NCBI GenBank assembly: GCA_024811115.1
Contig: JAKOGH010000732.1
Location: forward strand, 92,019 to 156,018
Source: Terana coerulea
Taxonomy: Eukaryota > Basidiomycota > Agaricomycetes > Polyporales > Phanerochaetaceae
Reading direction: 5' to 3'
Length of the DNA stretch: 64,000 nt
The first letter of the stretch is position 1; the number at the start of each line of letters is the position of its first letter. The notes under the pieces were generated by a model. The model was not told the DNA's origin. It saw nothing but the letters and a program-made list of their open reading frames with translations, and ran no database searches. A program made the position numbers and the translations under genes. Positions 16,101 to 59,341 of this stretch are shown here, in pieces.

Positions 16101-16271
16101 TGCAGCAATGCCCGCCGATAAACTCTCGTGAACTGAATCCGGCATCGTTGCACATGGACATGGGTCCATTGGCGCCACACGAGGAGACAAATATCTATAT
16201 AGACAAGGTCAGCATGAGTTATTTGATATGGCTGTAAGGTGACATCACTTGGATGTTGCGCATGGGGAATT
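13151..16271. other. gene-poor region between the duplication copies, left part
   Basis: No gene here meets my standard. Frames of up to about 160 codons exist on both strands between 14.3 and 15.9 kb, but they overlap each other, are GC-driven and match no family I know. A splice-like branch point and acceptor before 14826 and a short minus frame at 14568-14750 (MSTVVDPCGYRTTG) are the only hints of coding sequence. Confidence 0.4.
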
Positions 16272-22663: not shown

Positions 22664-24990
22664 GCAGGCGGCAATCACAGACTTCCCTGGAGAAAGCGAC
22701 GCGTCGCGATTTGTCCACGCGGGGCGGTGACCGCGTCTCGCACATTTTCCGTTGCTAGCGGGCGTCTGATCTCTCCGTTCCAGACGTCCTTCCGACCAGA
22801 CTGTCCTTTTATTTCCTGTCCCTACCCCGTCCCCGCCGAGCCAGGCCCATTTCCTCTCTGTCACTTCTACCACGACCTTTAAAACCCCATACGACCACCA
22901 CAGGACTAGGCACGACGGCGAAGGCTGCCCATCCCAGGACGAATAGATCAATGAGTGCACCATAATCGAACAAAGTGGGCCGAAGTCCTGCCTCTATTTG
23001 AGGAAGCTGAATGAAACCATGTTGCAGACATCATATTATTCCTCCCACCATGCTGGGATTTCTGCAAAGCTTTGTATCGTCGAAACCACCGGAAGCAGCG
23101 GAGGGAGATGATAACAGCAGCATCTCGAGCTGCGAGACAGACTGCGACTGTGCAAGCTGCACGGTGCGTGCGGAGTCACTGTGCCGTCTGAATGGTACTG
23201 ACCGCTCTTTACAGCGTGCCGAGGATGCACCTGTCACACCAGAGTGGACCGAACCCCCACATATGCTCAGAGACGCAGGGTACAGAGCCATCATACAACT
23301 CGCTGAGGCGAAGCAAGACGCATCCAACTGCCATCATCTCCTGGACACCCTGCAACAAGCCCATGATGAACTGCAGGTGTGCCCCGCCATCTGTCTATAT
23401 TTGTGCTCTATCATTCATATCACGTCCAGGCCCGCTATCATCTTCTGGACAGCCTGAAGTCGCAGCTCACGCATGACCTCGAATCTCAACTCTCCGCTGC
23501 GCAATCCGTGTGCACGAATGTCACAGGCCAGCTCCAGAGCGTGCGCGACGCGCTCGAGCAACAGACCGCGTCCGGCCGCGACCGTGAGCGCTCCCTGGCG
23601 TCCCTGCAAACCGAACACGACCGCCTTAGCACCGCGCTCCGCGCCTCCGACGAGAGCGTCCTGAAGGCCTCGGCCGCCCACGACGCCGCGCGCAACGAGC
23701 TCGCCGACGCCCAACTCTCCTTGTCGCGCGAACGCCAAGTCACGTCCCAGCTCTCCGACACGCTCTCCTCGGAATGCCGCAACTCGGAACGGCTCGCGAA
23801 CACTCTAGCGGCGTTGGAGGCCGAGCGCACGGAGCTGTCCCAAGCACTCGCGCGTGTGAATGCAGACAACGCGCAGCTGGGGCTGAGCATCGGGCGGCTG
23901 AATGATCAGCACAGAGAGGAGAGGGAGCAGTTGCTGGGTGCGGCGAAGGAGAGAGAACAAGGGTTGAGGTCGAGGCATGGGGAGAAGCAGGCCGCGACGA
24001 TGAAACAACTAGAGACCGCGAACGCGTCGCTCGCGCTCCAAACACAGAAGCACGATGCCGCCATTCTGGAGGTGAAGGCCCTGGAGGAGAAGCTTGCGTC
24101 CGTCTCTCGGATTCTGCACACAACAGAAACCGAGTTGGAACAGACCAAGCAGGGGTTCCAGGACCTGCTGCAGCGTTTCGAGCTGCGCGGAGACGAGGTC
24201 ACCAAGCTCTCCAGCTCAGTGTCCGACCTGGAAGCGAGGAACGCCAGCCTTGAGTCTTCCCTCCACCACACCACGTCCAAGCTCGAAGCAAGCCAGTCGT
24301 CTTTCGCGGACGCACAACGCAGGAACGATTCCCTCGCCCACGACCTCGACGTGCTTCGCACTCAGTCCACTGAGAAGACCCGTGAACTCACTCTGCAACA
24401 CCAAGACACCCTTCAGGCGCTCCACGCCCTCGAGGAGGCTGTGGCCGCGGAACGGAGCTCCAAGGAGGAAGCTACCGCTTCTCTTGAACAAGTCCGTGCT
24501 CAGTACGCCGAGGAAGTGGAGAAGCTGAAGACTGAGATCGAGGAGAAAACTTGCGTTATAGCTGACGTCACCTCTGCCACTGAGGCCGCGCACGCGTCGA
24601 AGGCGCAGGTCGAAGCACAGTTGGCAGCGCTGTCCAAGGAGATGCATGCGCGGATCGACAACCTTACGGAGGAGCTGCAGGCTAGGACGCTGGCTTTAGG
24701 GCAGATGGAAGCCGCCCGGGACCACGCCGTTGAGGTGCACGCCAGATGCGAAGTTGAGCTCGCCATGGCGCGGGACGAACTGGCTGAGACGACCCGGCAG
24801 CTGCAGCAAGAGCTGACGACCAAGTCCGAAGAGCTTGCTACCGCGGAGGCCGCCAAGCACAGTGAACACCGCGCGAGGGAAGAGCTGCGAGACGAGCTGG
24901 ACGGGCTGAAACAGAAGTCCGAAGAAGCCCTGGCGCATCTGCGCGACGAGGTCGAGTCACTCACGCAAGCCCTCGAAGCTGAGCGAGCCG
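22664..24990 (+). repeat. segmental duplication, copy B
   Basis: This matches 9607-12895 (copy A), lacks the 887-base insertion and therefore shows the pre-insertion site. It is preceded at 22616-22655 by a short hexamer-like run (GTGAG and ACAGCG units). The match ends about two fifths of the way through the coding region. Confidence 0.85.
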
Positions 24991-28877: not shown

Positions 28878-30285
28878 ATGCTTTCCACGAACCTGAAGTA
28901 TCTCGCATTTGCTCTTGTGGCGGACTGGATCCCTACAGCGGTCGGCCATGCTTGTAAGCATTACAGTGTCTTTCAACTACATGCTGATTAACGTCGGGTT
29001 CTAGCAATATGGCATCCGAGCATGTACGGCTTCAATGTCACCTCCAGCACGTACTCTTACGACAACCGGCCTGTTGTCCCGCTGTTCAACATGACCTTCG
29101 ACCAGTGGTGGTTCCACGGCCACCTCGACCACCCACCCAACGAAGGAGAGTTTTTCGAACTGCCTGCAGGCCAGGCAGCCACGGCAGAAATCGCATGCAC
29201 GAAGGCCGCCACGTCGTACCATACACCGGCGGACGGTGAAGATATACAAGATGGGAACAATCCATGCCCGGGCTCGCCCATGTCTGAGTACCACACGAAT
29301 GGCATCAACGACGTGAAGGGGTGTGCACTGGCGATTGCGTACAAGTCAGACGTCACATCAGTGCAGCCTGAAGACTTCGCGGTGTTCTCTGTCAACCAGA
29401 CGTGCGTGTGGAACCGCTTCACAGATTTCATGTCCCCCAGAAGATGCCTCCATGCCCTGAGGGCGGTTGTACTTGTGCATTCTTCTGGATACATTCAGTG
29501 CGTGTCTACATGATTCGTGATGATATACTACTTAATGGATTGAAACACTAGCCCGATAGTGGGGGTGAGCAGAGTGAGCGGCTTGTCCTCTAGAGGTCGC
29601 AACGTTTTACTCACGACTGCACAGATTACATGAACGGCTTCAAATGCAACGTTACTGGGTCAACTTCGACGGTCGCCGTGGCCCAACCACAACTACCACG
29701 TCGCTGTGGTGCCGACCCCGACAACGGCAAACCCCAAGCTGTCCCAGGCAACTGCACGTATGGTGCTAAGCAACCGTTCTACTGGCTACAACAAGAGCGC
29801 AACAACGTACGTCGAGACACTCTTGATCTCACCGCTCACCTGCTCAGTTGTGCCAATTTCGCAGATGTTCGAAGGTTACTACGCTCCGCCATTCTACACG
29901 GACCTCTATAATTTTCAGGATGGTGCCCAAGAAGACATCTTCCTGGACTCCTACACAAGCATACCAACGCCCAGTGCAAACTCAACCGTCGTCCCTACCA
30001 CTGTAAACGCTCCTACTGGCAGCACAACTACGTCTGGCTCCTCTCAAACTTCGGCCCCCAAACCTCCATTCTCAAATCCGAACGGGACCACGCAGCCTAA
30101 CAAGCCACCCTCATGGTTAGTCGCGCTGTCTTCTTCAGTTCCGGCGCTTGACTAACCATCGTGATAGTAAACTACAACTGAATCCGTCCCTCCAACGTCG
30201 GTCGCTTCTGAAGCGCGGTTTCCTTCAGCGGAGCAAGAGTCGTGGTATCTATCATCGCAGCTTCAGCCTGTGGTATCCCTTCTGA
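28878..30285 (+). CDS. AA14-family lytic polysaccharide monooxygenase
   Basis: This secreted copper enzyme family attacks xylan on cellulose in wood-decay fungi. Exon 1 encodes a signal peptide ([17 protein letters not shown]) and is spliced so that the mature chain starts [12 protein letters not shown], with the N-terminal His of the copper brace. Then come [34 protein letters not shown] (a likely second copper His), [12 protein letters not shown], a Cys-rich [46 protein letters not shown] and [21 protein letters not shown] Ser/Thr/Pro linker and a C-terminal exon [11 protein letters not shown] follow, ending at TGA 30283. The C run at 29434-29438 is one base short, and restoring it joins FTDFMSP to [10 protein letters not shown]. 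At least five introns. Confidence 0.9.
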
Positions 30286-30496: not shown

Positions 30497-30917
30497 CTAA
30501 CAACTTGAGGCGCGGAATGGTTTGGTAGCCTCCCTACTCCATGCTGGCAAATTCGACTCGCGCCATACCTCGGGATCCACTGGGGCACTCTTCCAGCATG
30601 CCGGATTCCACAGCACAGGCAATCTCGTCGGGGAGGATGACCGCGAGCCGCTGCACGGCGAGGAATTGTCTGAGTGGGTGGCGGCTGGACGCGAGAGCCC
30701 GATCAACTCGTCCTCGAGTTCTTCCTCAGTGTCTTCCTCGATGGGCACGAGGGTAAGCTCTATGATGTTGCCTACGATGTAGACTTCGGCGTCTGCGATG
30801 AAGATGAATAGTCAGGGGCGAGCGTGGAGAAAATAAAAAGGACAGATGCTTACAAGGAGTGGTACTGTTGCTGGGTTCGTTCATATAGATTTCGTCTTCG
30901 TAGATGATGCTCAACAT
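30497..30917 (-). CDS. small acidic orphan-family protein S1
   Basis: Two exons (30854-30917 and 30497-30792) give 119 residues. It starts MLSIIYEDEIYMNEP. The 61-base intron interrupts a Tyr codon after its first base, and exon 2 continues AEVYIVGNIIELTLVPIEED. The middle is acidic and Ser-rich. The C-terminal part has WNPACWKSAPVDPEVWRES and ends FRASSC. There is no signal peptide or membrane segment. I do not recognise the family, but three more members lie in this window (S2 33330, S3 53260, S4 58872), always beside GST genes. Upstream on the coding strand an ATAAATAATGG TATA box lies about 130 bases before the ATG. The frame is intact. Confidence 0.72.
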
Positions 30918-31670
30918 GGTTGTATGCAAGCGATGAGAGGCGGTGATGTGCGAAGAGGGACAATTAAGGGAGTTCGAGTTTATCTTTCTCGGAGGCTGCG
31001 ATGGCGTGTGAGGAGGTTTATGAGATCTCTGGTACTCAGCCCAGCCATTATTTATGCCTCCAGGCTACATTGAATTTAATGTGGGTCAGGCAACCGGAAC
31101 ACCTGCTTCGAGTGCTGCACTGGCAGCGCGGCATGATGTAGTGCACGGATGATTTTGCCCCGCTGCAGCCCGTCGGCGGGCGGGATCAAGTCCTTAAAAG
31201 GCAATGCGATCGGCGGGAGCGGGACCTAGAGCCTAGGCCGCGGGTTCGAATCACTGCGGGTGCACCTGCTGCTGCACGCCGCCACGGGCGTGCGCGACCG
31301 ACACACCGCGATTCATGAGGTGCACGAGGAAATGGCGTCGGGCTGTGCTTTATTTCAGGCCCGTAGACGGATTCGAACTACCGGAAGCAAGTTGGGCTTC
31401 CGCAGCTAATCCCCCTGAACCCCTTAGTATTCAGTGAGCCCGTCAAGAGACTGGTACTCAAAATCATTCACAAATACTTCTCAATTTAACTGCGCCATAC
31501 GTGCGGATAGCTAGACGATGTTCCCGCCGCCGGAATCAGCCACAGATGCACATGGCATAGGCGCTAGTCAACGTCAACAAATTGAACTCGTGTATACCAT
31601 TTTGGTAGTATGGAGATAGGTACATGTTTTCCAACTTCATTCGACCACTACCGAGGTGTTACTTTCTGGC
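30918..31670. other. intergenic, duplicated flank of the S1/GST1 unit
   Basis: It holds the S1 promoter (ATTTATG near 31048, reverse complement) and about 170 bases (31090-31260) that recur, diverged, upstream of S2 (33950-34110). A GGTTCGAATC at 31249 resembles a tRNA T-arm, but no cloverleaf can be built around it. The part after 31385 resembles the downstream flanks of GST2 and GST3. Confidence 0.5.
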
Positions 31671-32550
31671 TTAAGGTGGGGGTAGCGTAGCCCTGATCGC
31701 GAGGATCTTCTGGAACGCAGGACGCGCCATGAGCTTCTCGTGCCACCTGTGCCGTATGTTAGCGAAACAGCGACGACTGGCGCATGCGCCAAAAAACTCA
31801 CGCTGCGGTAGCAGGGAACTCTTTGCGAAGTCAAGGCCCTTCAAAGTCAGCCTGAGCGCCGTGCGGTTCCACCTTCACGGTCGTTTAGTACCAAAGTCCA
31901 AAGTCACCCTATAGTGCATACTCACTCGATAAAGGCAAGGTCTGCGACGGTCACCTTCTCGCCGAGAATATAGGGCTGCTTTGACAGCACACCCTCGAGC
32001 ACGCCGAAAATACGGAGCTCCTCGTCCTCGTACCGCTTAATGGCGCTCGGGAGGTGCTCCTCGTGCCGGACTGTGAACCAGTGCGCCTGCCCGAAGTACG
32101 CGCCCTGGCCCGACGCCTGGAAGTACAGCCACTGCAGCTGGTGGTACGTCTCGTCACCGGGGGCCGAGATGATGTGCTCAGGGTCGTACTTGTCGACGAT
32201 GTATTGGATGATGGCGTTGGACTCCCTGCCAGGGGCTGTCAGCAGAAGGGGGAGAACGGGGGCGAGCGACGCACCAGACGACGAAGTCGCCGTTCTTATG
32301 GTCGACGATGGCGGGGATGCGCCCGTTCGGGTTGAATTTGACGAACTCGGGGCTCTTGTGCTCGTTCTTGGCGAAGTCGAAGTAGACCGACTCATACGTG
32401 AGGCTGAGCTCTTCGAGGACGAGGGCGACCTTCCTGAAGTCCACCGTAGTGCTCAGCGACATAGCAACACTTACAGTCAGAGCAGAAAACTTACCATCCG
32501 TTGGGTCCACCGAGGTGGGAGTACAGAGTGAATTGCTTGCCGTGCGACAT
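31671..32550 (-). CDS. Ure2p-like glutathione S-transferase, copy 1 (GST1)
   Basis: Five exons. It starts [19 protein letters not shown] (ATG 32550) and ends TLPPP before TAA 31671. The thioredoxin-like half has [31 protein letters not shown] and, after the second intron, ESNAIIQYIVDKYDP (the ES pair contacts glutathione in this superfamily). The helical half has [18 protein letters not shown] and KVTVADLAFIEWN. Intracellular conjugation or peroxidase activity on small toxic compounds is the usual role of this class. One base is missing near 31815-31822 compared with its paralogues (AAG-AG-TTC instead of AAG-GAG-TTC), which shifts the frame after GLDFAK. It could be a base-call error or a real lesion. 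The closest copy is GST5. Confidence 0.82.
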
Positions 32551-33329
32551 GGCGAAGTGTTGTCGGAAGTCTACTGAGTGGGTTTAGTTGTGAAGAGATG
32601 AGGTGGTTGTTGGATGCTGTCGAGTACCTCAGTACTGTCTGCCTTATATACCACGCTGTCCCTCACATATCTTCACTCGGATGTGTCTGCAGGTCGAATT
32701 CTCCCAGCACGCCTTCATTGCTTACCGTTCGTGACCGTACGCGTACCCTGCCTTCTGTCAACTGTGCGCATTACGCGCACTTCCCTGTAGCCTGCTGATA
32801 CATTGATTAGTCAGTCTACACGGTGGAAATATGGCTAAGTGCTCACACTGCGCGGGTGTAGCTGAGTGTCGATCCCCCTTTGGGCTTCGTACCCTCAGGT
32901 GAATCATCTGGCGCTGAGAAAGCAAGGTACATTTCGAGTGGTAGTAAGCGTTTGTGCGCCTCCACCGTGTCGCCGTGCTGCAGCGGACGGCGCCACGCGG
33001 AGGTTATGTATGTTGCTTGAAACATCTGGATTCTCCAAGTCCTTGTCAGAGTTGCATCGCACGTGTGTAGCAGATCGGGAAGCGCACTTTCAACCTTCAA
33101 TCGGAGTGGTCTTTCTTTGCCTGATAAGCTGTATGGCAGAATTTTGGGGTACTTGTCATGAACATATAACTGACGCCCTAACTTTCGAGATGCAGAGCAG
33201 CAAATCTAACATCTTGAACTTGAAGATATGAGCATTGCAGTCACCGCGCAAACTAGCGGAAGCGTGTTATACAGTGTTTTATTTGTGCATGTGAAGCGTT
33301 GGACCAGCCAAAGACTATCATCCCGCCGA
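32551..33329. other. GST1 upstream region and S2 downstream region
   Basis: No gene is visible. Near 32793-32822 there is a GATTAGTCAGTC element similar to those upstream of the other GST copies. The part before 33330 matches the 3' flanks of S1 and S3 (TTGGCTGGTCCAACGCTT, reverse complement of 33296-33313). Confidence 0.45.
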
Positions 33330-33762
33330 CTACCAACTTGAGGCCCGCAATGGCTCGGCATCCTCCCCATTCCACGCTGCCAGGTCCGACTCGCGCCACA
33401 CCTCGGGGTCCGCCAGGGCACTCTTCCAGAAGCCGGGATTCCATCGCACAGGGAGCCTATGTGGGGAAGGAGACCGCGAGCTACTGTGTAGCGAAGAGTC
33501 GTCCGAGGGGGCGGCGGCTGGCCGCGGGAGCTCGAGCGACACGAGGTGATCTGCGTACTCGTCTGAGTCCTCGAGTTCTTCCTCTATCGGTGCGAGGCTG
33601 AGCTCTATGATGTTGCCTACGATATAGACTTCTGCGTCTGTGATGGCGATGGGGGGTCAGAGGCAAGTGTGGAGAAGCAACAAAGGAAGGATGCTTACAA
33701 GGAGCAGTGCTGCTGCTGGGCTCGTTCATATAGACTTCGTCTTCATAGATGATGCTCAACAT
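33330..33762 (-). CDS. small acidic orphan-family protein S2
   Basis: Exons 33699-33762 and 33330-33637 give about 123 residues. Start MLSIIYEDEVYMNEPSSS. The intron again splits a Tyr codon (T|AC). Exon 2 has AEVYIVGNIIELSLAPIEEE, an acidic SDEYADHLVSLELPRP, a Ser-rich stretch, then RWNPGFWKSALADPEVWRES and the end RASSW. It is the best intact member for defining the family: an acidic N-terminal half, a Ser-rich linker and a conserved Trp-rich C-terminal motif. A TATA-like ATAAATAGCGGCC lies about 140 bases upstream on the coding strand, shared with S3. Function unknown. Confidence 0.75.
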
Positions 33763-34813
33763 GATTGAAGGAAGTGTTGATTGGTGGTAGTGGGCGGGGT
33801 AGGAGAAAGACCTTTGAGCTGGGGTTTATCTTTCGAAGATGCAGCAGGCCAAGGATTTGGAGAGTGAAGAGGTTCTTGTGCTGCCCAACACTCAGCCTGG
33901 CCGCTATTTATGCCTCCAGGATGTAATGTGGGTCAAGCAAGCGGAACACATGTTTCGAGTGCTGCAGCGCGGCATCATGTCGTGCACAGGCTTTGCTTCC
34001 GTGGTGGGATGCAGGCGGGCGGGATCAAGTCCATAAAAGGCAAGATCATCAACACGAGCACGGGCCCGGCAAAGGCCGCGGGCATGTGTCTCGGCATCCG
34101 CGGCCGACGCAGTCCACCACGAGCGTGCGCGGCCAACCGTAACACTGTATGCCTGGCGTTAGGTGCTTTTCACCATGTGAGTCACCCGATAAAGTGGCGA
34201 TTCTCACCCACGAACCTAGGAATAGTGCCTATGAAAACGCAAGCGCTGAAAACGCGGGTTGGTGATTTTCGCCGGACACAGTGGTAGCTTCGATGTGAAA
34301 AGCACCCACCAAATGTCCGATTCACCAACTGATTTTATTCCAGGCCCCCGGTCACCCATCGCACATCTCTGACAATTCACCATCTTGCATAGGAATAGTG
34401 AGCGCACAAGCTTGGTGACTATCACCATTCTATATAGCTCATTGCAATCCAGCTAATCCCACTTTTTATAATAATCACCCAATTTTATTAATTACCGAAC
34501 CAATACAGGAAGTAACTAATGCACTATCCTATCGCTACTGCAAGACTACCACTAACAACTTACATATGACCCATCCCAGCCTTGGAGTTTCTCGGCAGCA
34601 GCACTTCACGGGCAGCACAGGTACACAAGGCCTCGCCCGTCGTCAAGTCCCGAGGTGCAACCTATGAAGACGCGGCCACCAGTGCCCACCAACATTGTTC
34701 GCAGAGATGGTCCCACCATCAGCGCCCGTGCATTCTGAACGATACCTGGCAGACGCACCATGACTCTCCTGGCACGCGTAGTTACTGTTAGCCTGACTCG
34801 AGGCGAGACGAGG
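33763..34813. other. intergenic, S2 promoter and short CACC-rich repeats
   Basis: It contains the S2 promoter and a diverged copy of the S1 upstream block (33950-34110). From 34160 to 34500 there are several TTCACCA and GTGATT motifs in both orientations and AT-rich sequence, which may be remnants of a mobile element. No gene is supported. Confidence 0.4.
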
Positions 34814-35468
34814 TCATGGAGCGCAGACTGTAGTTGGTCGCCATGCCAGATACTGGGCTGCAATCCTCCGTGCTGGCGGCACACTTGCCAGTGCGTCATG
34901 GGGCTCCGGTGTCCATTCACGTGCATGCTCTTCAAGCCATAGCACAAGGCAGGCACACAACCTGGAAAACTCTACAACAGCATCACCGCCGCCTGACTTC
35001 AGTACGTACACACCGCCCGGTCACATCCAACTCACACATGCAGTGAACCTTATTGTGGTGCAGAACGGTGAGGGCGTGCCGTTCGGGAAGCTCTTCAGCA
35101 GGCGGTGGATGTTCATGACGTGTTTTCTGTATTGTCGGTCAGCGCTGACCATAAAAGTTACATGCAGGTGCTCACTGTGCCAGTATCACACATACCACGT
35201 CTTGCGGGACATGAACGTCGACGCACACAGCCGAGTAAGTGTTGACCTCATCAAAGTCGGCAATGACTCACCGGAAACAGTTAGGACCTACGAACGCACA
35301 TCCCTCAATGCCTCTGACCGCAGACACATGGCTGATGTGGAAGCTGCCTTCTCCGGAGATCTTCAGAGCGCCGTTTGCGCCATACACTAACTCGGGAAGT
35401 CGGGGCACTGCGCGTATTATGTCGTGAGGATGACACTGTGCACAATGGCTGGGATGAGCTGCTCTGAT
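34814..35468 (-). CDS. uncharacterised spliced gene inside the GST array (partial model)
   Basis: Three minus-strand exons join in one frame through good splice sites: 35272-35468, 35036-35174 (donor GTGAGT on both) and 34814-34996. The peptide includes HPSHCAQCHPHDIIRAVPRL, LVYGANGALKISGEGSFHIS, HVTFMVSADRQYRKHVMNIH, FPNGTPSPFCTTIRFTAC and the C-terminal EFSRLCACLVLWLEEHAREW, ending TVCAP. Cys/His pairs could bind metal. The 5' end is open; the long frame at 35492-35872 may supply a first exon. I do not recognise a family. The three-exon frame agreement is the main support. Confidence 0.45.
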
Positions 35469-36408
35469 CTGAGACGATACAAGTAACTTAGCTACAAGGC
35501 TTGGTGTTCATAATCTTCAAACTGTTTGTCTGGTATGCTGCGTTGCGTGGTTGAAGCTTGAAGACGTGGAAGCGGGGGCACCGCGCGATGCGGAGCAGCA
35601 GCCTTTGAAAGCCCAGGTGACCAAGAGGGAGTAAATAAGTTCGAATAGGCCGGCGACGGTGATACAACACTGAAAAAGAGGATGCCGTGAGGGTGTTGTC
35701 CAGGAGGAGGCGGTGGTAGAAGACAGAACGCCGTTGTAATGCGTCGAAGTCCCAGCAGCACTATAGGTCTCTCAGCAAGCGCCCAAATACGCGCCATCAA
35801 AGTGTCGGCATGGGCAACTTCACCACCTTTAGTCGGGGTGGGTATATTCACCATATCATTCACTGTCACCACCTTACCACCGCTTTAGATGGTGATTCAC
35901 AAAAATCACCATCTAAGTTGATAGGCGTCACCACTTTCCGGGCTCACAGTGTAAGTTGTCAACCGTACACTGAGATCCACAAGGTAAACAAAGACATGGC
36001 GATTTACAGCGCGATATATAGGAGCGTGAGACCAAATGGTGACCTCTGGAAGCAAGACAGAGGCTTAGGATGACTGGGCTTCCGCAGCTGGTCCGAGTCG
36101 CGATTGAAATCCCTTAGTATTTAGTAGGCCCGTCGAGAGCCTCGGCATTATTCGCAAGTACTTATCAGTGCAGCTGTACCATATATGCTGATGTATAGAT
36201 ATAGTTTTTGTTGTTTCTGCGCGCCCGACGCCCAAACAAGCGGTGACGCGTGAAGCGATGCTCGAAAGCGAGCCCAAACCGCACTCGGCCGCCACACCGT
36301 CGATGTCAATCAGCAATGTCAAGCAGTGTGTCATGCAAGCTTTAGGTACATGCTTTTTAAATCCAACGCAGACAATGCTGAGGCGTAGCGTTTCCGTAGC
36401 CTCCACAT
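35469..36408. other. intergenic, possible first exon of the preceding gene and GST2 downstream flank
   Basis: A 127-codon minus frame (35492-35872, MVTVNDMVNIPTPT) could belong to the gene at 34814. Around 35800-35950 there are paired GGTGAT and ATCACC motifs including a perfect TTAGATGGTGATT inverted pair. The part 36060-36400 is a diverged copy of the GST1 and GST3 downstream flanks. Confidence 0.4.
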
Positions 36409-37293
36409 TTACGCGAATGCGGCCCTGATCTCGAGGAGCTTCTTGTACGCGGGGCGCGCCAGGAGCTTCTCGTGCCATCTGCAACGCATGTCAGCGAAAT
36501 GCTAGCGATCGCAGCAGGCGCGCAAAGACTCACGCGGCGGTCGCGGGGAACTCCCTCGCAAAGTCGAGGCCCTCCAGCGTGAGCTTGAGCGCGATGACGT
36601 TCCACCTTCATGTTGATTCAGCACCATCACCAGTCTGAACCATAGGTCACTTTATAGCATATACGCACTCGATGAACGCAAAGTCCGCGACGGTCGGTTT
36701 ACCGCCGACGAGCCAGTCCTGCTTCGACAGCACGCCCTCCAGCACGCCGAACACGCGGCGCTCCTCGTCCTCGTACCGCGTGACGGCGCTCGGGATCTGC
36801 TCGTGGTGCCGGTGCTTGAACCAGTACGCTTGGCCGAAGTAGGGGCCCTGGCCTGACGCCTGGAAGTACAGCCACTGCAGCTGGGTGTAGCGCGCGTCTC
36901 CGGGCACGGAGATCGTGTAGGTGGGGTCGTACTTGCCGATGAGGTAGCCGATAATGGCGTTGGACTCCCTGCAAGAGGTTCTCAGCAGAAGGAAGAGAAG
37001 AAGGGCGTGCAACGCACCAGACGACGAAGTCGCCGTTCTTATGGTCGACGATGGCGGGGATGCGACCGTTCGGGTTGTATTTGGTGAACTCGGGGGCCTT
37101 GTGCTCGTTCTTGGCGAAATCGAGGTAAATCGTCTCGTACGTGAGCCCAAGCTCTTCGAGGACGAGGGCGACCTTCCTAAGTATCAACGCAGTGCACTCA
37201 GCAACACAGCAGCGGTCAGGGTTAGAGCAGAATCTACCATCCGTTGGGGCCGCCGACGTGAGAGTACAAAGTGAACTGCTTGTTGTGCGGCAT
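36409..37293 (-). CDS. Ure2p-like glutathione S-transferase, copy 2 (GST2)
   Basis: Five exons from ATG 37293 ([19 protein letters not shown]) to TAA 36409, about 221 residues, a normal class length, with an intact frame. Features in order: [92 protein letters not shown] and the last exon [18 protein letters not shown]. Its start differs from the other copies (MPHN instead of MSHG). It is most like GST3. Introns sit at the same places as in the other copies, so the set arose by duplication after the introns were in place. Role: cytosolic glutathione conjugation or reduction (family inference). Confidence 0.92.
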
Positions 37294-38320: not shown

Positions 38321-39209
38321 TCAAGCGAGTGCAGCCTTGATCTCGAGCAGCTTCTTGTACGTGGGGCGCGCCACGAGCTTCTCGTGCCATCTGCAACGCG
38401 TGTCAGCGAAACACCAGCGATCGCAGTGGGCGCGCACAACTCACGCTGCGGTCGCGGGGAACTCCTTCGCAAAGTCGAGGTCCTCCAGCGAGCGCTTGAG
38501 CGCGATGGTGTTCCACCTGCAAGTCCATTCAGCACCGTCACCGGTCGGAACCACAGGTCACCCGATTATGTAGCATGTACGCACTCGACGAACGCAAAGT
38601 CCGCGACGGTCGGCTTGCCGCCGACGAGCCAGTCCTGCTTCGCCAGCACGCTCTCCAGCACGCCGAGCACGCGGCGTATCTCGCCCTCGTACCGCGCGAC
38701 GGCGCTCGGGATCTGCTCGGGGTGCCGGAACTTGAACCAGAACAGCTGGCCGAAGTAGGGGCCCTGGCCCGACGCCTGGAAGTACAGCCACTGCAGCTGG
38801 GCGTAGCGCGCGTCGCCGGGCACGGAGATCGTGTGCTTGGGGTCGTACTTGTCGATGAGGTAGCCGATGATGGCGTTGGACTCCCTGTGCGAAGCGGTCA
38901 ACAGACGGGGAGAGGACGAAGGGCGAGAGACGCACCAGAGCACGAGGTCGCCGTGCTTGTGGTCGATGATGGCGGGGATGCGACCGTTCGGGTTGTATTT
39001 GGTGAACTCGGGGGCCTTGTGCTCGTTCTTGGCGAAGTCGAGGTAAATGGACTCGTACGTGAGCCCGAGCTCTTCGAGGACGAAGGCGACCTTCCTGAAT
39101 TACGACGCCGTGCTCAGCATCACAGCAGCGGTCAGAGTCAGAACAGGACTCACCATCCGTTGGGTCCACCGTTGTGGGTGTACAGAGTAAATTGTTTGCC
39201 GTGCGACAT
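38321..39209 (-). CDS. Ure2p-like glutathione S-transferase, copy 3 (GST3)
   Basis: Five exons from ATG 39209 (MSHGKQFTLYTHNGGPNGW) to TGA 38321, frame intact. The glutathione domain has [20 protein letters not shown] and [20 protein letters not shown], then [20 protein letters not shown]. The helical domain has [39 protein letters not shown] and DFAKEFPATAAWHEKLVARP. Differences from GST2 (LF for AY near the H-site helix, GEI for DEE) are the kind that may alter the hydrophobic substrate site. It is the first gene of the left array, reading outward, with about 2.4 kb of gene-free sequence upstream. Confidence 0.92.
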
Positions 39210-44672: not shown

Positions 44673-46615
44673 GGCTGAGGAGCGGGCTGGGGTCGAGTGG
44701 GCTGAGTGGGTCTGAGCTGGAGAGGTGGAGGAGAGGCGAGGAGACGTTCTTCAATTGATCTTCTGGCGGGGCGAGCTGCACGCAGGCCGACTGTTGTGGA
44801 GAGAGACAAGAAACAAGGTGGAGCCACGCAGCCACGACAGAAACAGGTCACAACAAGTCACGCCGACAAATCACACATGCTATATGCAGAAACCGACATG
44901 CTATTCTCGGAAAGACACCGCGCTACATAACAGCAAATGTGACATTTTGTGACCGATTGTGGAGCAATGACGTCATAGGGTTACTGACGCGAGATCGTGG
45001 CGGAGATCAAACCGCTGCATACGTCATTCATCATCAGTAGAAGTATCGCACCAGTCAACCGGGCGCACTCACCTCGGGGCTGCGACGGGCACAAACACCT
45101 CTGCTTTGGCTCTGCAAAGCAAAGCGTACAGGTCAGTAATCGTCAATATACACAAAGTACTCTTGCGTGAAAAACTGAAAGTACACTGGGGGTCACGGGC
45201 TGGGCCCGCAATCAACGCCAAGACTCATACCGCCGGCTTCTCTGACACCCGACCCCGACAGGAGAAAAAAAAAAAGAACAAAACATGGCATGACGGGGAG
45301 TGACAGGTTGGTGCCCACCCTGCAACAACCTCCGTGCCCCCTTCTCAACAACCATCTCTCATCTGCTGAGATGGAGCCGTGGATAACGCTAACGAACCAG
45401 CGGTCATATACAGTCCACGGAAGCAGAAACTTATCTCGTGCGAAGGTCGCCGGGGCACCCCGCACGCGCAATTATACGCTCGCGCTAATCCAACTCTGAT
45501 AGTATGTCCATGCCCCCGTCGTCAGAGGCCTGCCCACCTGAGACACAACAATCGGGCCCTCGGTAAAATGCGTACCGCGCTCCGTGCGCGGAGCCCTTCT
45601 GCGCACAGGCAGGCACGCCCGCCGGGTCCAATCACAACGAGGACACCGGTGGAGCAGGCGAGCACGCATGAGACCACAGGACACCACAGGCGAAAGCACG
45701 CTGATCGCCCTTCCCGCCTTCGCGGGGGCCGCCATGCGTTGCGCGCGCACACCGCAAAGAGGCCGACTCCACGAGCACAGATGAACACCGGACGTCAACG
45801 CGGCGCCACATCCGGCGGCTCGCCCGCAGACATCACCACCACGCTCGCAGGCACATGCCAGGACGCAGCAGAGGCAATTTGCCAGAATGCGATGCGCCTG
45901 GGAAAGCGCCCGCGACGGAGCATGGTGCGTTGCCGGTGGCGGGAAGGGGGCAGCTGAGTGTTCCCAGCTGCGGCACCCAGCGATGCAGACGCAAGGGGAA
46001 AGCATGTCGGGGTGGTGCGAACTGCTGCGGGTGCATCTCGCGGAGCATTCGATCGTAATCGTAGAACAGATACGAACGAATGGATACGAGAGCTAAACAG
46101 AAATGAAGCAAACGGTGACAGAGAAGAACAGAAGCATGGATATCGAAGGGTCGTGCCCGCAGGAGCTCATTGGTTGAGAATTCCTTGAAGCGAAAGTGGG
46201 GGAGGCAGGCGAAGCGACCAATGAGCACGGAGGAAGGCACGAGCCAATAGAATGCGCCGACATAGACGCACGGAAAACATTGGCCACATTGTCCCATGAT
46301 GTGTATATGTCAGCTGAGAGCCAGACGATATGAGGTGGCAATGGATATCCGTGCATCATCCGCCGATAAGCGGTGGCGAGCAAGAACACATACACGGCCC
46401 TGTGATGCCGGCATAGACAACAGGAATTGTGGCGATCCATCACCGACCCCGTGCCAGTAGTCGCGAATGGGCTGCGGAAACACGTGTGGCATAGTGCCAG
46501 AGTGACGTGAATGGCAAGGTGGAGAATGAAAGGAAGCGAGAAGAAAGAGGCGGGAGGAGCACCGATAGGGCAACGTCGAGGGCAAAAGGTAAACGCAAAG
46601 GGAAGAGGGACGTAC
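44673..46615. other. transcription factor upstream region and unresolved urate oxidase 3' end
   Basis: No independent gene is supported. Overlapping frames at 45379-46005 on both strands are GC-driven. The missing last exon of urate oxidase must lie at about 46300-46600. Confidence 0.4.
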
Positions 46616-47839
46616 GGGGTCAGGTTGTCAAGGCCCGCGTAGCGCATGTCCACGGGGATATAATGCTTGTTAGGCAGCTCGTACGACACCGTCTGGACGT
46701 GCTTGTTCTCCGTGAGGATACGTTCGGCCATTTTGTACAACGTTGCCTGTGACCCAGAACAATGAGTACAACAGCACCTGCCTTCATGCAGAATGCGTGA
46801 AAGTGAAGATAGCAAGCTGTATGCGCACCTGAACACTTGCGCTCTCGTCCTCCGCAAACACCTCCAGCGTCGCCGTGCGCGCCTTCACGACTACGGCGTT
46901 CCCGTCCCAGGCGGTGCCCTCCGCGCTGAGCTCACTTGGAAGGGTGAAGGCGTCGAGCTTGGTGTTGGGGGAGACGCTGAAGGTCGCGTACGTGTACTTG
47001 AGCTCGACGGAGGTAGAGAAAATCCGGTCGTTCACTTCCGCGAGAGTGGTGTGTTCGTCCCGAATGAAGTTCTCGAATGCGGAACCAGTGGATTTGAGCA
47101 CTAAAATGGAGTAGATATAAGTACGTTGGGAGAGTGCTTGGGACAAGACGTACCGAGCAGGTCGGAGAGTCCTGCGGAGACAGTAGCAGTGATCTTGTCT
47201 TTGCCTTGCGAGGCGTCCACCTGAGTGCATTCATTAGCCCTTGTTAGATGATACTAATGGGAACGAGGCGTACTGCGACGTCCACCACTCGCTTCTCATC
47301 CCCATCCCTCCAGAACGCATGGCTATGTTCCTGGCCGTTCAAGTCGATGCGCTTCCAGCGCAGCTGCTCGACCTTCACGAAGGACTTGTGTATATGCGCA
47401 TACTTTGAGACGAAGTACGTCCCAAGGTGCAGCGCAAAGCGTTCGGGGTGCAGGATGTGGGGCGAAGTCTTCGCAAGGTCTAGGCAACATTATCATATTT
47501 GGTTCCATAACGTCGTAAATAATGAAGACGTACGGTAGGTAATGTTCTTGACTGCACCCAATAGTTAGAATGGAACAGGCTCGATGTCTAAGATACGACG
47601 TACTGGAGTCTGTGGCGACGATGGGAGAATTGTCTGCCTCGGTGTAGCTTCAGGCAATTGATAGTCAGTATATGCGCCTGATCATGTAGCATCCATACAC
47701 ACGCAATGTCCACTTCGCCCTCAAGCAGCGCAGTAACGTTGTACTCGACGATGGTGTGCCATTTGTCCTCGCGAACGATGCGGAAGACTCGAATGGCCTG
47801 CTTGCCGTAACGCGCGTGGGAGAGCTTCACACTGGCCAT
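46616..47839 (-). CDS. uaZ: urate oxidase (uricase), last exon not resolved
   Basis: Uricase oxidises urate in peroxisomes during purine breakdown. It starts MASVKLSHARYGKQAIRVFR at 47839, with the catalytic Lys motif YGK. It continues IVATDSIKNITY (the conserved Thr-Asp of the active site), LHLGTYFVSKYAHIHKSFVK, QEHSHAFWRDGDEKR, LKSTGSAFENFIRDEHTTL and ELPNKHYIPVDMRYAGLDNL. About seven introns; the frame is otherwise intact. The chain is followed to LTP, where a GTACGT donor occurs (exon edge 46616). The expected C-terminal exon, with AEVF and a PSGLI-like motif and a peroxisomal tripeptide, could not be identified; a degraded-looking VYVFLLATA stretch lies near 46390. The gene may be complete with errors, or truncated. 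Confidence 0.88.
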
Positions 47840-52451: not shown

Positions 52452-53259
52452 TGCTGATGGTGGGCTAGGCTTGAGGTAGTGTGGGGTAGGTGATTGAGAG
52501 TTTGTTATTTTGTGAAGTCGTTCGCAGAGCCTTTTATGCTTTGGCCAGACCGCTGTTGATGAGTCCGAAGGAAATGCGGATGTACCGTTTTCGGGCTCAT
52601 CACTGAGCGAACGTCAATGTTCTCCTTCGCGGAAGTATATTCGCTCGTCCGAAATCTAGTGTCAGGGATTTCAATCGGGACCGTTGTACCAGTGGCAGCC
52701 GCCTGCAGCCGCCGATCGAGCTCAACGTCCTCGGTTAATTTAGCTTACTGGATAGCTGTTACACCTCTACATGTCTGATTTCTTACATCATCGAAAATTT
52801 CTTTAATATATTTCCAGGTTTTATTACGCTCTGGTAGAAATCCAGTAAGTTCAGGCATAGTAGTTTGTGCATACACTTAGATTAGAACATGTCACGGTCG
52901 ACCCACGTCAATTGCCTTTTATGGCCAGCTTTCCGGAGCTGGGAACGGATCAATTTTACCGACTTCCGGAGTTCGATCATCCCGCACTCTCATCCCGACC
53001 ACCATGATCTCGTCCCGCCCGCCGCCGTGCTACGGCGGAAGCAAACCCGTGCGCTGCATCACGCCGCGCTGCAGTACTCGAAGCAGGTGTTCCGCTCTCC
53101 TAGCCCTCATTGTAGTCTAGAGGTATAAATAGCGGCCAGGCTAAGTGCTGGACAGTGCAGAAATCTTCTACACTCCAACACCCGCCGCATCCTCGAGTGA
53201 AAATTTGCGCCTTTCTTCCGGGCTTCACACATCACCACTTCGCACAGCTTCATACAATC
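52452..53259. other. upstream region of S3 with TATA box
   Basis: The first part is the promoter of the 51876-52451 gene. TATAAATA at 53124-53131, in the context AGGTATAAATAGCGGCCAGG, sits about 130 bases before the S3 ATG and matches the S2 promoter. The part 52740-52900 is AT-rich. No gene seen. Confidence 0.5.
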
Positions 53260-53668
53260 ATGTTGAGCATCATCTATGAAGACGAAGTCTTCATCAGCGA
53301 ACCCTGCGGCAGCACTCCTCTTTGTAAGCACCCATCCTTTGCATCTCCTTCACGCTCGCCCCTAACCCGGACCCTCTATCTCCTTTACAGACGCCGAAGT
53401 CCACATCGTAGGCAACATCATAGAACTCACACTCGCGCCCATTGAGGAAGACATCGAGGAAGAACATGACGAGTCAGACGAGTACGCCGGAGTCGCTCAA
53501 GCTCCCGCGGCTAGCCGCTGCCCACTCGGACGACTCTTCGCTGTGCAGCAGCCCGCGACCACCGTCTCCGACGTCCCTTCCGTGTGCGGTGGTATCCTGG
53601 CTGCTGGAAGAGTGCCCCTAGCGTATCTTGAGGTCGTGGCGCGAGTCGGACCTGGCAGCGTGGAATAG
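53260..53668 (+). pseudogene. small acidic orphan-family member S3, frameshifted
   Basis: Exons 53260-53323 and 53391-53668 start MLSIIYEDEVFISEP, split the same Tyr codon with the intron, and continue AEVHIVGNIIELTLAPIEED up to SDEYAG. Compared with S2, eight bases are missing just after this point, so the rest is read in another frame and ends at TAG 53666. The lost frame still shows PRLAAAHSDDSSL and, in a third frame, RWYPGCWKSAP, so the C-terminal Trp motif is broken. It may make a protein with a new tail, but the conserved end is gone. Its 3' flank matches S1 and S2. Confidence 0.65.
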
Positions 53669-54501
53669 GGGTGATGTCAGACCGTCCGGAGCCCCAAGTT
53701 CGTAGTTCGTGGGGGAAATATTGGTTGGCTGGTCCAACGCTACTATTACCCAAATGGAACACTGAACAATATACTTCTTCCAATTTTCACGGAGACTACA
53801 AGGCTCGCATTTTCAAGCTCAAGATTATACATATGCCGGTCCACAAGGTGCAACCGCACGCCATGTAGTTGGTGCTTGTTATGTCGGAAGACGGACTGTC
53901 AATCATTTGTTCTAGTAAGTACGCAAGAGTCCTGTCTTTTCGCCCTTTCAGCGGTAACGAGCGGCCGACGCGACGGATGATTGAAAGTATGAATTCCGCT
54001 CCGTTACTCTATACAACCCTAACAAAGAGGTGATTTCAGCAGCATAAAGCCCTCCGCGTGGCGCCGTTCACTGCAACGCGGTGACACGGTGGAGGTGTGC
54101 CACGCTTGAAACCGCGCCAATTGTTCCCTGATTTCTCAGCGTCTTTGACGCACCACAGGCTACGAAGCCTGAAGCTAGGCGAAGGACGATCGATGTTCAG
54201 TTACTGTGAGCGCCTTACCACATTGCCACCGTCGTGGCTGACCAATCCGAGGTGTTAACCGAGCCACCGGGAGGTATGTAACATACATACAGCGCCAAGT
54301 GACGGAAAACGAGCGGCGCGTACTGTTAAAAAGGTGAGGAGCGAAAGTTTGCCGGAAACCTCAAACTCCAGACATCCAACCAGGAAAATCTCAGGGAGCA
54401 ATACGTAAGGCGGATCGACTTCAAGGACTGGACAGCATCAAGGGTCTCGTCTCATTTCTCCAAGGCTCGCTTCCCTTATCCTTCTCTAGTAGCACGGCAG
54501 T
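53669..54501. other. GST4 upstream region
   Basis: No gene. It contains the reverse form of the GST promoter element (54237-54266), a region 54080-54300 resembling 56770-57000 upstream of GST5, and a GTTAAAAAGG TATA-like box near 54325. Confidence 0.5.
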
Positions 54502-55403
54502 ATGTCGCACGGCAAGCAGTTCACTCTGTATACCCACCTCGGTAAACCCAACGCCGGCTCATGGTAAGCTATGCTCTGGATGTGACTGCTGCTGCGATGC
54601 TGAGCACCAGGTTCGAATTCAGGAACGTCGCCCTCGTTCTTGAAGAGCTCGGACTCACGTACGAGTCAATTTCCCTCAACTACAGCAAGGGCGAGCACAA
54701 GGCCCCCGAGTTCACTGGGCACAACCCGAACGGGCGCATCCCCGCACTCGTCGACCACAAGAACGGCGACTTCGTTATCTGGTCCGTGTCTCTCTTGCAC
54801 GTAACTCCTCCAGGATGCTGACACCGCCGCACCGCGCCACGCCCCAGGGAGTCCAGCGCCATCGTCAGCTACCTCGTCGCTAACTACGACCTCGAGCATA
54901 CGATTTCCGTCACCGGCGACGCGCGCTACACGCAGCTCCAGTGGCTATTCTTCCAGGCGTCGGGCCAGAGCCCGTACTTCGGTCAAGCACACTGGTTCAA
55001 AGTCCGGCACCACGAGCACATCCCGAGCGCCATCAAGCGGTACGAGGATGAGGAGCGCCGCGTATTCGGGGTGCTCGAGAGTGTCCTGTCGAAGCAGGCC
55101 TGGATCCTCGGCAACAAGCCGACTGTCGCGGACTTCGCTTTCATTGAGTGCGTATAAGCTGTAAGGTGACCAGGAACTTGCGATGGTGCTGAATAAACTT
55201 GAAGGTGGAACCGCATGGCGCTCAGTCTCTTGGAAGACTTCGACTTTGGGAAAGAGTTCCCCGCCACCACAGCGTGAGTTCTAGGCGTATGCTGCGCTTG
55301 CCGTTGTTTCGCTAACATGTGACACAGATGGCACGAGAAACTTCTGGCACGCCCTGCGTTCAAGAAGCTCATCGAAATCAGGACTGCACTGCCAGCGGCT
55401 TGA
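54502..55403 (+). CDS. Ure2p-like glutathione S-transferase, copy 4 (GST4)
   Basis: Five exons, frame intact, about 221 residues. Start MSHGKQFTLYTHLGKPNAGS, then [99 protein letters not shown] and [20 protein letters not shown], with stop 55401. It differs most from the other copies: two extra residues before the first intron, Ser for Asn after ES, and FF for YF. It may have its own substrate range. It is the only intact GST of the right array and is transcribed away from the central block. Confidence 0.92.
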
Positions 55404-57271: not shown

Positions 57272-58152
57272 ATGTCGCACGGCAAGCAGTTCACTCTGTA
57301 CTCCCACCTTGGCGGACCCAGCGGATGGTAGGTTCTGCTCTGGCTGTAACTGTCACTGTGTCGCTGAACGATATGTCGGACTACAGGAAGGTCGCTCTCG
57401 TCCTCGAAGAGTTCAGCCTTACGTAAGAGTCGATCTACTTCAACTTCGCCAAGAACGAGCACAAGAACTCCCGAGTTCGTCAAATTCAACCCGAACGGGC
57501 GTATCCCCGCCCTCGTCGACCACAGAACGGCGACTTCGTCGTCTGGTGCGCTGCTCGATCGTCTCCTCCTCCTTCTGCTGACAGCCCCTGACAGGGAGTC
57601 CAACGCCGTCATCCAATACATCGTCGACAAGTACGACCCCGAGCACATTATCTCGGCCCCCGGCGACGAGACGTACCACCAGCTCCAGTGGCTGTACTTC
57701 CAGGCGTCGGGCCAGGGCGCGTACTTCGGGCAGGCGCACTGGTTCACGATTCGGCACGAGGAGCACCTCCCGAGCGCGATCAAGCGGTAAGAGGACGAGG
57801 AGCTCCGTATTGTCGGCGTGCTCGAGGGTGTACTATCCAAGCAGCCCTATATCCTCGGCGAGAAGGTGACCGTCGCAGACCTCGCCTTTATTGAGTGAGT
57901 GTACACCATGAAGTGACTTTGGACTTGAAACGAGACTGAACGAACCTGAAGGTGGAACCGTACGACGCTCAGGCTTACTTTGAAGGGCCTTGACTTTGCG
58001 AAGGAGTTCCCTGCTACCGCAGCGTGAGTGTTCTGCGCATGCTTAATCTCCGCTGTTTCGCTAACGCACGACACAAATGGCACGAGAAGCTCATGGCGCG
58101 CCCTGCCTTCCAGAAGATCCTCGCGATCAGGGCTACCCTGCCGCCGCCTTAA
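57272..58152 (+). pseudogene. Ure2p-like glutathione S-transferase, copy 5 (GST5), pseudogene
   Basis: The gene is nearly identical to GST1 in layout (start [19 protein letters not shown], end ATLPPP). It has several lesions against the other copies: a nonsense TAA for the Tyr in SLTYES (57424), an extra base in EHK-SPEF (about 57467), a missing base in DHK-NGD (about 57525), a second TAA for the Tyr in KRYEDE (57788), and the last intron ending CACAA instead of CACAG (58076). The rest ([18 protein letters not shown] and KVTVADLAFIE) is well preserved, so the decay is recent. GST1 is its closest intact-looking relative. Confidence 0.9.
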
Positions 58153-58871
58153 GGCAAGGAAGTAACACCGCGGAAGTGGACAAATGAGACTGGAAAGCGT
58201 GTTTCTGTTAAATCACATGTACCAGTACTAGGACAATGTACAGTTGCCCAGCGCCGATGGCAAGCGCGGCGTGGGCCAGTTCTCAAATTTCAAGTTGGTT
58301 CATCTTTTGTTTTGTTGGCCAAGTCACGCCAACAGTGGGCAGAGTATATACCGATGCGCATACCCAGCCACACCGATGCGTCTTTAGGAATTCCGGACTC
58401 TTTTCTGGTGCGCTAGTTTGGGAAATTTCAACCTTGACTGACTCTGGGGGCTCTTTCACCGTTCACCGTACGACATTCAGCTTCAGGTTGTGGCGGAATG
58501 AAGCGGAAGCAGGCCGCGGCAAAGCCGAGCGATCATGTCGGTCGTTCCCGCGCACAACTGCCTTTTTGAGCTGGCTCCTGAGTCCCGCCCGCCCGCACAA
58601 GCGCCGGAAGCAAAGGCCCGACTTGAACGACGATCTCATCCGTCGTCTCGCCGCCCAATAGTCTCGGGGGCGGCGTTCCGCGATCGTACCCGCAATGTTT
58701 CTCATTCGACACCAGATAATGCTTCCGGAGAGAGATAAATAGCTGGGGCACTGAGAGGTGAGTTGTCAGAAACCCTTCACTGCATCTACCCGCCTACTAC
58801 TCTTTGCTGGCCAAAGATATTCTCATATCCACCACTCTACTATCTCGCAACCTTACCGCTTCATCACAATC
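58153..58871. other. upstream region of S4
   Basis: No gene seen. AGATAAATAGCTGGGGC at about 58731-58747 is a TATA box, about 130 bases before the S4 ATG, similar in spacing to the other S genes. Confidence 0.45.
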
Positions 58872-59341
58872 ATGGTCTACCACTGCTACGCTTTCTTCAC
58901 CCGCTGTGCTTCTACCGGTGTTCGCACCTGTATGTCTTCATCCAGCCCCTTATTATTCCCTTGTGCTCACACGCCATCGTCACAGACACTACTGCAATCA
59001 CCATAATGGGACATAATATGCCTATAACCCTGTCCCCCATCATAGAGGAGGCTGAGGTCGAATGCATCGATCTTTTCGAGTCGTTCGACGCCCACCAATC
59101 ACCCGTATTCTCGGACTCGGACGATGATCCTAGCACCTTTTTGCGCTATACACCCGCGCATTATGAAACCGAGGTCCCCGCGACGCCGAAGCTCCCCTCG
59201 ATACCGAGGTTCACTAGCAGCAGCTTTCCGTGTCATTGGGAAATCACGGTCCCATCCGCATACCGCACGCCGGACTTGCACACGTTGGAAGAGGCAGGCC
59301 CTTCCACCAACGCGAGGATTGGTTTGGGGTTGTTCATGTGA
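58872..59341 (+). CDS. small orphan-family protein S4, divergent member
   Basis: Exons 58872-58929 and 58986-59341 give about 137 residues. Start MVYHCYAFFTRCASTGVRT. The 56-base intron splits a Tyr codon after its first base, as in S1-S3. Exon 2 reads TTAITIMGHNMPITLSPIIE, lining up with the family block IVGNIIELTLAPIEE, then an acidic FSDSDDDPSTFL and a C-terminal WEITVPSAYRTPDLHTLEEA that may match the Trp-rich motif. Identity is low, so the shared intron phase and layout are the main evidence of kinship. The frame is intact and function is unknown. Confidence 0.6.

What the first reader, a model, noticed from the sequence alone, without database searches (positions are those of the whole stretch)
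33330..33762. S family: undescribed small acidic proteins linked to GST genes
S1, S2 and the start of S3 share MLSIIYEDE, an IVGNIIEL block, a Ser-rich acidic linker and a Trp-rich end (WKSA..DPEVWRES). All have one phase-1 intron splitting a Tyr codon and a TATAAATA promoter. I know of no family with this signature. Regular spacing beside Ure2p-like GSTs suggests a stress or detoxification role, perhaps as a partner or regulator (inference).
Basis: partly seen in the sequence, partly recalled or inferred. Interest (0 to 1): 0.78.

Follow-up and report, generated by a model that had tools for sequence, protein, structure and literature searches.

The report
Orphan small-protein genes beside detox genes
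A fungus, probably a wood-decayer, carries a small family of genuine but undescribed protein genes, for which no relatives were found in the searches made, that were copied along with neighbouring detoxification (GST) genes; whether they help those enzymes is unknown.

Summary
The S genes look real. S1 (33330-33762, -) and S2 (30497-30917, -) encode 123 and 119 aa, each with one phase-1 intron splitting a Tyr codon. S3 (53260-53705, +) has an interrupted frame in the window; its allele on another contig is open (124 aa). dN/dS between copies is 0.25-0.51, lowest in the sense frame for all three pairs. I found a missed, divergent fourth member, S4 (58872-59341, +), with the same promoter and intron.

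All four loci lie in this window, 0.7-0.8 kb from Ure2p-like GST genes on the same strand. The S promoter signature (up to 2 mismatches) occurs only there and at their alleles. S1-S3 found no relative among about 5.8 billion proteins (a GST control gave 584); S4 was not searched there.

Two claims fail. TATAAATA is only at S3; S1 and S2 have CATAAATA. The GST linkage is not independent evidence of partnership: an S-GST unit was co-duplicated, S and GST core promoters differ, and 18 other GST loci show no S within 1.5 kb.

Verdict: an orphan gene family in a duplicating GST cluster. An intracellular binding or regulatory role is plausible but unproven.

The parts
33330..33762 (-). S1 gene: exon 1 33699-33762, intron 33638-33698, exon 2 33330-33637; 123 aa, D+E 24, K+R 7
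   Evidence: dN/dS
30497..30917 (-). S2 gene: exon 1 30854-30917, intron 30793-30853, exon 2 30497-30792; 119 aa
   Evidence: frame open in both alleles
53260..53705 (+). S3: exon 1 53260-53323, intron 53324-53390, exon 2 region 53391-53705; frame interrupted in the window copy, open in the allele on C77 (124 aa)
58872..59341 (+). S4, divergent fourth member (137 aa): exon 1 58872-58929, intron 58930-58985 (phase 1, splits Tyr), exon 2 58986-59341
   Evidence: allele on C861
33891..33916 (-). S1 core promoter signature with CATAAATA
31035..31060 (-). S2 core promoter signature with CATAAATA
53120..53145 (+). S3 core promoter signature with TATAAATA
58730..58755 (+). S4 core promoter signature with GATAAATA
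33992..34024 (-). upstream element TCCCGCCCGCC..CGGAAGCAAA of S1
   Evidence: 6 exact sites in the genome, all S1/S3/S4 alleles, control 0
53013..53045 (+). upstream element TCCCGCCCGCC..CGGAAGCAAA of S3
58583..58614 (+). upstream element TCCCGCCCGCC..CGGAAGCAAA of S4
31674..32550 (-). GST-A, Ure2p-like, between S1 and S2
36418..37293 (-). GST-B, Ure2p-like
38327..39209 (-). GST-C, Ure2p-like
54502..55394 (+). GST-D, Ure2p-like, next to S3
57272..58149 (+). GST-E, Ure2p-like, frame interrupted in the window, next to S4

Best explanation
S1-S4 are a genuine, apparently lineage-restricted (orphan) family of small acidic protein genes embedded in a tandemly and invertedly duplicated cluster of Ure2p-class GST genes in a fungus near Phanerochaete. 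Shown: gene structure, purifying selection, four loci, a promoter signature found at no other gene, and duplication of an S-GST unit. Inferred: the products are intracellular (by eye, S1-S3 have no signal-like N-terminus), fold only over a short N-terminal strand-rich block around AEVYIVGNIIEL, and carry a disordered acidic Ser/Pro linker and short Trp/acidic helices near the C-terminus, so they most likely act as small binding or regulatory proteins through short motifs. Physical linkage to the GSTs arose by co-duplication and need not mean that the proteins interact.
For: Conserved ATG, splice sites, intron phase and stop position. dN/dS 0.25/0.42/0.51, lowest in the sense frame, Fisher P 6e-8 to 6e-3. 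S4 alleles: 6 synonymous and 4 non-synonymous differences, dN/dS 0.19. Promoter signature at 8 sites in the genome with up to 2 mismatches = 4 S loci x 2 alleles, control 0. Upstream element at 6 sites, all S1, S3, S4 alleles, control 0. S4 homology: 1-7 of 500 shuffles reach the alignment score in 6 comparisons, plus the same promoter, intron phase and Tyr split. Co-duplication: the S1-GST-A and S3-GST-D spacers align (32883-33003 with 54169-54051, 76%) and dS is similar, 0.48 and 0.53. The AlphaFold2 model of S1 exon 2 has a hairpin E2-6/E9-13 at pLDDT about 70. No homologue of S1-S3 found.
Against: No transcript or protein evidence. Model confidence is low (mean pLDDT 51.6, pTM 0.18, 54 of 101 residues below 50, 2 rows, exon 1 missing), so the functional part is inference. 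S3 in the window and the S1 allele on C297 have interrupted frames, which would also fit partial dispensability. Orphan status rests on predicted proteins, where short two-exon genes may be missed, on a search that needs shared 5-residue words, and on S1-S3 only. The duplication history is not simple: S1-S2 dS is 0.75, and GST-A is closer in dS to B, C and E (0.36, 0.33, 0.32) than to D.
Confidence: 0.55

Rival explanations
1. S proteins are dedicated partners or regulators of the neighbouring Ure2p-class GSTs, co-expressed with them under wood-extract or xenobiotic stress.
For: All 4 S loci are next to a Ure2p-like GST on the same strand at 0.7-0.8 kb, in two arrays of opposite orientation. 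Some basidiomycete Ure2p genes respond to wood or aromatic compounds (PMC3815920, passages).
Against: Linkage is explained by co-duplication. The S promoter elements occur at no GST. Core promoters differ: GTATATAA upstream of GST-A, B, C and E, BATAAATA at S. 18 GST loci on nine other contigs show no S within 1.5 kb. In PMC3227518 tandem PcURE2p4/6/8 are not all regulated alike (passage), so even neighbours there need not share control.
Confidence: 0.15
2. S genes are functional but unrelated hitch-hikers: a lineage-specific gene that happened to sit in a duplicating GST segment, with its own regulation and role.
For: Promoter signature found only at S loci, no S seen at other GST loci, no S copy in the GST-C/GST-B gap or upstream of GST-C, S3 frame differing between alleles.
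Against: Four loci all beside GSTs and none found elsewhere in the genome.
Confidence: 0.25
3. Not genes: conserved non-coding or decayed repeat sequence read as protein.
For: S3 in the window and the S1 allele on C297 have interrupted frames; the upstream region is 69-79% identical between copies, about as much as the end of exon 2 (73-79%).
Against: dN/dS lowest in the coding register, conserved splice sites and stop, exon 1 and early exon 2 more conserved (80-90%) than intron (74-77%) or 5' leader (63-64%).
Confidence: 0.05

Closest known systems
Orphan (taxonomically restricted) small-protein gene families of fungi (the kind is recalled; PMC7105643 abstract start in the listing says most fungal small secreted proteins are coded by orphan genes)
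   Same: Short, no recognised domain, no homologue found for S1-S3, local copies
   Different: S1-S3 lack an evident signal peptide (my reading) and S1 has no Cys, unlike typical small secreted proteins; they carry a shared promoter signature and sit in a GST array
Tandem Ure2p-class GST clusters of wood-decay basidiomycetes (PMC3227518, PMC3815920; passages only)
   Same: The neighbouring GST-A to E form such a cluster; Ure2p genes are described as duplicated in tandem in many species
   Different: The passages I saw mention no interspersed small-protein family; S proteins are not GSTs
Yeast Ure2p-Gln3 type regulation (PMC3815920, passages)
   Same: Only an analogy: a Ure2p-class protein that acts on a regulatory protein
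   Different: No GATA-factor match for S1 or S2 in Pfam; that paper says the prion-related N-terminal extension occurs only in some yeasts

Membership tests
Any Pfam-A family | score above the family's gathering cut-off | tested here: not met
   S1 best PF05440 12.4 bits (cut-off 27), S2 none; S4 best PF05503 10.4 bits (cut-off 27); the S3 allele was not scanned
Proteins with a solved structure | significant sequence match of the S1-S3 profile | tested here: not met
   3 matches up to E 10, best E = 1
Known or predicted proteins of public genomes (S1-S3) | homologue at E <= 10 | tested here: not met
   0 of 54 and 0 of 6128 candidates; control GST-A 584 of 815 candidates at E <= 0.001, including many Polyporales
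Known or predicted proteins of public genomes (S4) | homologue in the protein collection | not tested
S family (S4 as member) | promoter signature, phase-1 intron splitting Tyr, IxG...LxPIxEE core | tested here: met
S family (S4 as member) | MLSIIYEDE start and WKSA..EVWRES end | tested here: not met
   both ends diverged
Small secreted proteins | signal peptide | not tested
   no predictor at hand; by eye S1-S3 begin MLSIIYEDE, without a hydrophobic signal core; S4 not judged
Partner of Ure2p-class GSTs | co-expression or binding | not testable with these tools
   no transcript or interaction data here

The most novel reading that the evidence does not exclude
S1-S4 are a newly evolved family of small disordered adaptor proteins that bind and regulate the Ure2p-class GSTs they are duplicated with, evolving fast in protein sequence (S4 against S1-S3) under a strictly kept private promoter, i.e. 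a lineage-specific accessory layer of the fungal detoxification network.
Probability: 0.1. Interest if true: 0.7.

Novelty: new member of a known kind. Interest (0 to 1): 0.38.

Why it matters
If S proteins regulate their neighbouring GSTs, they would be a non-enzymatic accessory component of the GST detoxification network of wood-decay fungi, and physical linkage would have pointed to it. Even without that, the set is a clean case of a lineage-restricted gene family with a kept promoter and a diverging protein, useful for studying how orphan genes are retained. As it stands it is an ordinary kind of thing, an orphan family in a duplicating cluster, of moderate interest.

Tried and rejected
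Distant relatives elsewhere in the genome: weak hits on C829, C197, C243, C359, C432, C787 and C367 were fetched and examined. C197, C243 and C359 are near-identical copies of one repeat (98.8-99.8%). The hit on C829 has two stops; its DNA shows no similarity to the S3 allele above shuffles, and S1 exceeds 20 shuffles slightly (31 against 28) in one short stretch; I saw no S exon 1 or IVGNIIEL block in its three forward frames. None of these contigs has a promoter signature site. Rejected as chance. A weak S4 hit on C572 (E 0.41) and an S1 hit in L018 (E 0.23) were not followed.

Viral and prokaryote contigs: 60 and 15 pattern matches, none a relative by tblastn; low prior, done for completeness.

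Promoter co-regulation of S and GST: no word of 8, 9 or 10 bases shared by at least 2 of 3 S (S1-S3) and at least 3 of 5 GST promoters, but both controls also gave 0, so the test has little power. Counts of known elements (Yap1, STRE, CCAAT and others; motifs recalled, not from a call) showed no pattern common to S and GST.

S copies in other gaps of the arrays: 6 regions scanned; S4 found after GST-E; an S2 match in the GST-A..S2 gap is S2's own flank, where the two stretches overlap by 21 bases; nothing else passed the threshold.

Not done: fold search (model too poor), folding of full spliced proteins (the tool admits contiguous translations), second structure job, Pfam scan of the S3 allele.

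Full report
What is there. The window is the right end of a 156 kb contig (C571) of a 48.4 Mb genome in 896 contigs. S1 lies at 33330-33762 on the minus strand and S2 at 30497-30917 on the minus strand. Each has a 64-nt first exon, a 61-nt intron of phase 1 that splits a Tyr codon, and a second exon ending at an aligned stop. S1 is 123 aa with 24 acidic and 7 basic residues; S2 is 119 aa (20 and 8). S3 lies at 53260-53705 on the plus strand; in the window its second exon is interrupted, but the allele on contig C77, 98% identical over 5.6 kb, is open and gives 124 aa. C297 carries alleles of S1 and S2 (98.4% identical over 10 kb); the S1 allele is interrupted, the S2 allele is open. That C77 and C297 are the second haplotype is inferred from this identity and colinearity. 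Indel events between alleles run at 2-3 per kb, mostly single bases (18 of 21 and 13 of 17), and one falls in an LPMO AA14 exon, so assembly error is possible; but the S3 second exon has four in 316 bases, while exons 2 and 3 of GST-A and GST-D have none.

Are they genes? Between copies, dN/dS is 0.25 (S1-S2), 0.42 (S1-S3 allele) and 0.51 (S2-S3 allele), with Fisher P 6e-8, 9e-4 and 6e-3 on rounded counts. In a six-frame control the sense frame has the lowest value in all three pairs (0.25, 0.44, 0.51); the next is the antisense register that shares its third positions (0.33, 0.50, 0.57). Exon 1 and the start of exon 2 are 80-90% identical, the end of exon 2 73-79%, the intron 74-77%, the linker 68-75%, the upstream region 69-79%, the 5' leader 63-64%. 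I take the protein-coding reading as well supported; expression is not shown.

A fourth member. Scanning 6 intervals around the GSTs against S DNA found a clear match after GST-E. There S4 (58872-59341, +, 137 aa) has a 58-nt first exon, a 56-nt phase-1 intron splitting a Tyr codon, and a second exon starting TTAITIMGHNMPITLSPIIEE, matching AEVYIVGNIIELTLAPIEE of the others. Protein alignment scores against S1, S2 and the S3 allele are reached by 1-7 of 500 shuffles in 6 comparisons. An open allele lies on C861, with 6 synonymous and 4 non-synonymous differences. Sequence between GST-E and S4 differs between the haplotypes. The MLSIIYEDE start and the WRES end are not kept in S4, so the family core is the short strand-rich block and the PI.EE motif, not the Trp-rich end.

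Promoter. TATAAATA, claimed for all, is only at S3; S1 and S2 have CATAAATA and S4 GATAAATA. The wider signature GAGRBATAAATARYKGSBRSRCTRAG, derived from the four, occurs at 8 sites in the genome with up to 2 mismatches, being the four S loci in two alleles each, with 0 in the reversed control; with 3 mismatches two more sites appear (C640, C664, not followed) and the control gives 1. An upstream element TCCCGCCCGCC-N(8-16)-CGGAAGCAAA occurs at 6 exact sites, all S1, S3 and S4 alleles, control 0; S2 has its first half and an altered second half. These patterns were made from the S loci, so finding the S loci is by construction; the information is that no other place has them.

Family size and reach. 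Genome searches with S1, S2, the S3 allele and S4 find these loci and alleles, apart from weak matches that were examined and rejected or, on C572, not followed. In the public protein collection none of 54 (S1 query) and none of 6128 (S1-S3 alignment) candidates reached E <= 10. The same collection gave 584 proteins for GST-A, the best from Phanerochaete carnosa and P. sordida at 67 and 71% identity, with many other Polyporales among the 120 listed. So it holds relatives of this fungus, and the fungus is probably a Polyporales species near Phanerochaete (inference from one gene family).

Neighbourhood. Five Ure2p-like GST copies lie in the window: GST-C, B and A on the minus strand (38327-39209, 36418-37293, 31674-32550) and GST-D and E on the plus strand (54502-55394, 57272-58149), GST-E with interrupted frame. 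'Ure2p-like' rests on the names of homologues (e.g. P0047, a Trametes coccinea 'glutathione transferase Ure2p class', 59%). Reading each array in its own direction: GST-C, GST-B, S1, GST-A, S2; and S3, GST-D, GST-E, S4. S-to-GST gaps are about 780 (S1/GST-A), 760 (GST-A/S2), 800 (S3/GST-D) and 720 bases (GST-E/S4), from these coordinates. The wider gap between GST-B and S1 holds a repeat at about 34143-35952 that matches many other places in the genome. The S1-GST-A and S3-GST-D spacers align, and dS is 0.48 for S1/S3 allele and 0.53 for GST-A/GST-D exons 2 and 3: an S-GST unit was most likely duplicated. The rest of the history is less simple: S1-S2 dS is 0.75 and GST-A is nearer to B, C and E than to D. 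Linkage is thus largely inherited and not four independent events. Of 30 GST loci fetched (each with 1.5 kb on both sides; some may be alleles of each other), 18 lie on nine contigs other than C571, C77 and C297; a profile of S1-S4 found nothing at them among the 30 best rows printed (down to E 0.36), nor in one 3.9 kb gap of the C561 GST cluster. Tandem Ure2p genes are known in wood-decay fungi, and members of one P. chrysosporium tandem set are not all regulated alike (PMC3227518, passages); Ure2pA genes reach 20 in P. carnosa (PMC3815920, passages).

Mechanism. AlphaFold2 on S1 exon 2 with two rows gives mean pLDDT 51.6 and pTM 0.18: a hairpin (residues 2-6, 9-13) at about 70, then a low-confidence linker and short helices at 25-31, 67-73 and 82-88; 54 of 101 residues are below 50. 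This fits, weakly, a small strand-rich head, a disordered acidic Ser/Pro linker and short Trp/acidic motifs, i.e. an intracellular binding protein acting through short motifs. I put that as most likely, inferred, with the GST-partner version at about 0.15.

In print: searches for Ure2p with glutathione transferase and Phanerochaete (15 of 26 papers listed), three of GST, gene cluster, white-rot, orphan gene (12 of 27 listed), Ure2p with tandem and Polyporales (2 papers), lineage-specific small proteins with GST (none), taxonomically restricted genes in Agaricomycetes (none) and the three peptide strings (none) showed no description of this family in titles and abstract starts; I saw passages of two papers. 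The library holds open-licence papers only.

Noticed in passing
34143-35952: Repeat of about 1.8 kb upstream of S1; 46 listed matches in the genome, itself and its allele included, many covering only the first 300 or last 150 bases; perhaps a DNA transposon or MITE-like element.
   Followed up: partly
10937-12899 and 23023-24987: Direct repeat of 1965 bases at 92.5% identity overlapping two long ORFs (826 and 663 aa) with only weak, below-cut-off coiled-coil-type Pfam matches; also an inverted repeat of 309 bases at 10044-10352/10632-10940 (97.7%).
   Followed up: no
28992-30152: LPMO AA14 gene next to S2; further AA14 matches lie on C571 outside the window and on C880.
   Followed up: partly
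49906-51672 and 59529-60794: Two ORFs with Pfam Pkinase_fungal matches flank the right-hand S/GST array; the first has frame-changing allele differences.
   Followed up: no
58213-58321: The second haplotype has different sequence between GST-E and S4 (contigs C77 and C861 both depart from the window here), on C861 including a repeat also found at 16271-16629.
   Followed up: partly
6835-7560 and 46096-46884: Homogentisate 1,2-dioxygenase and uricase Pfam matches in the wider window.
   Followed up: no
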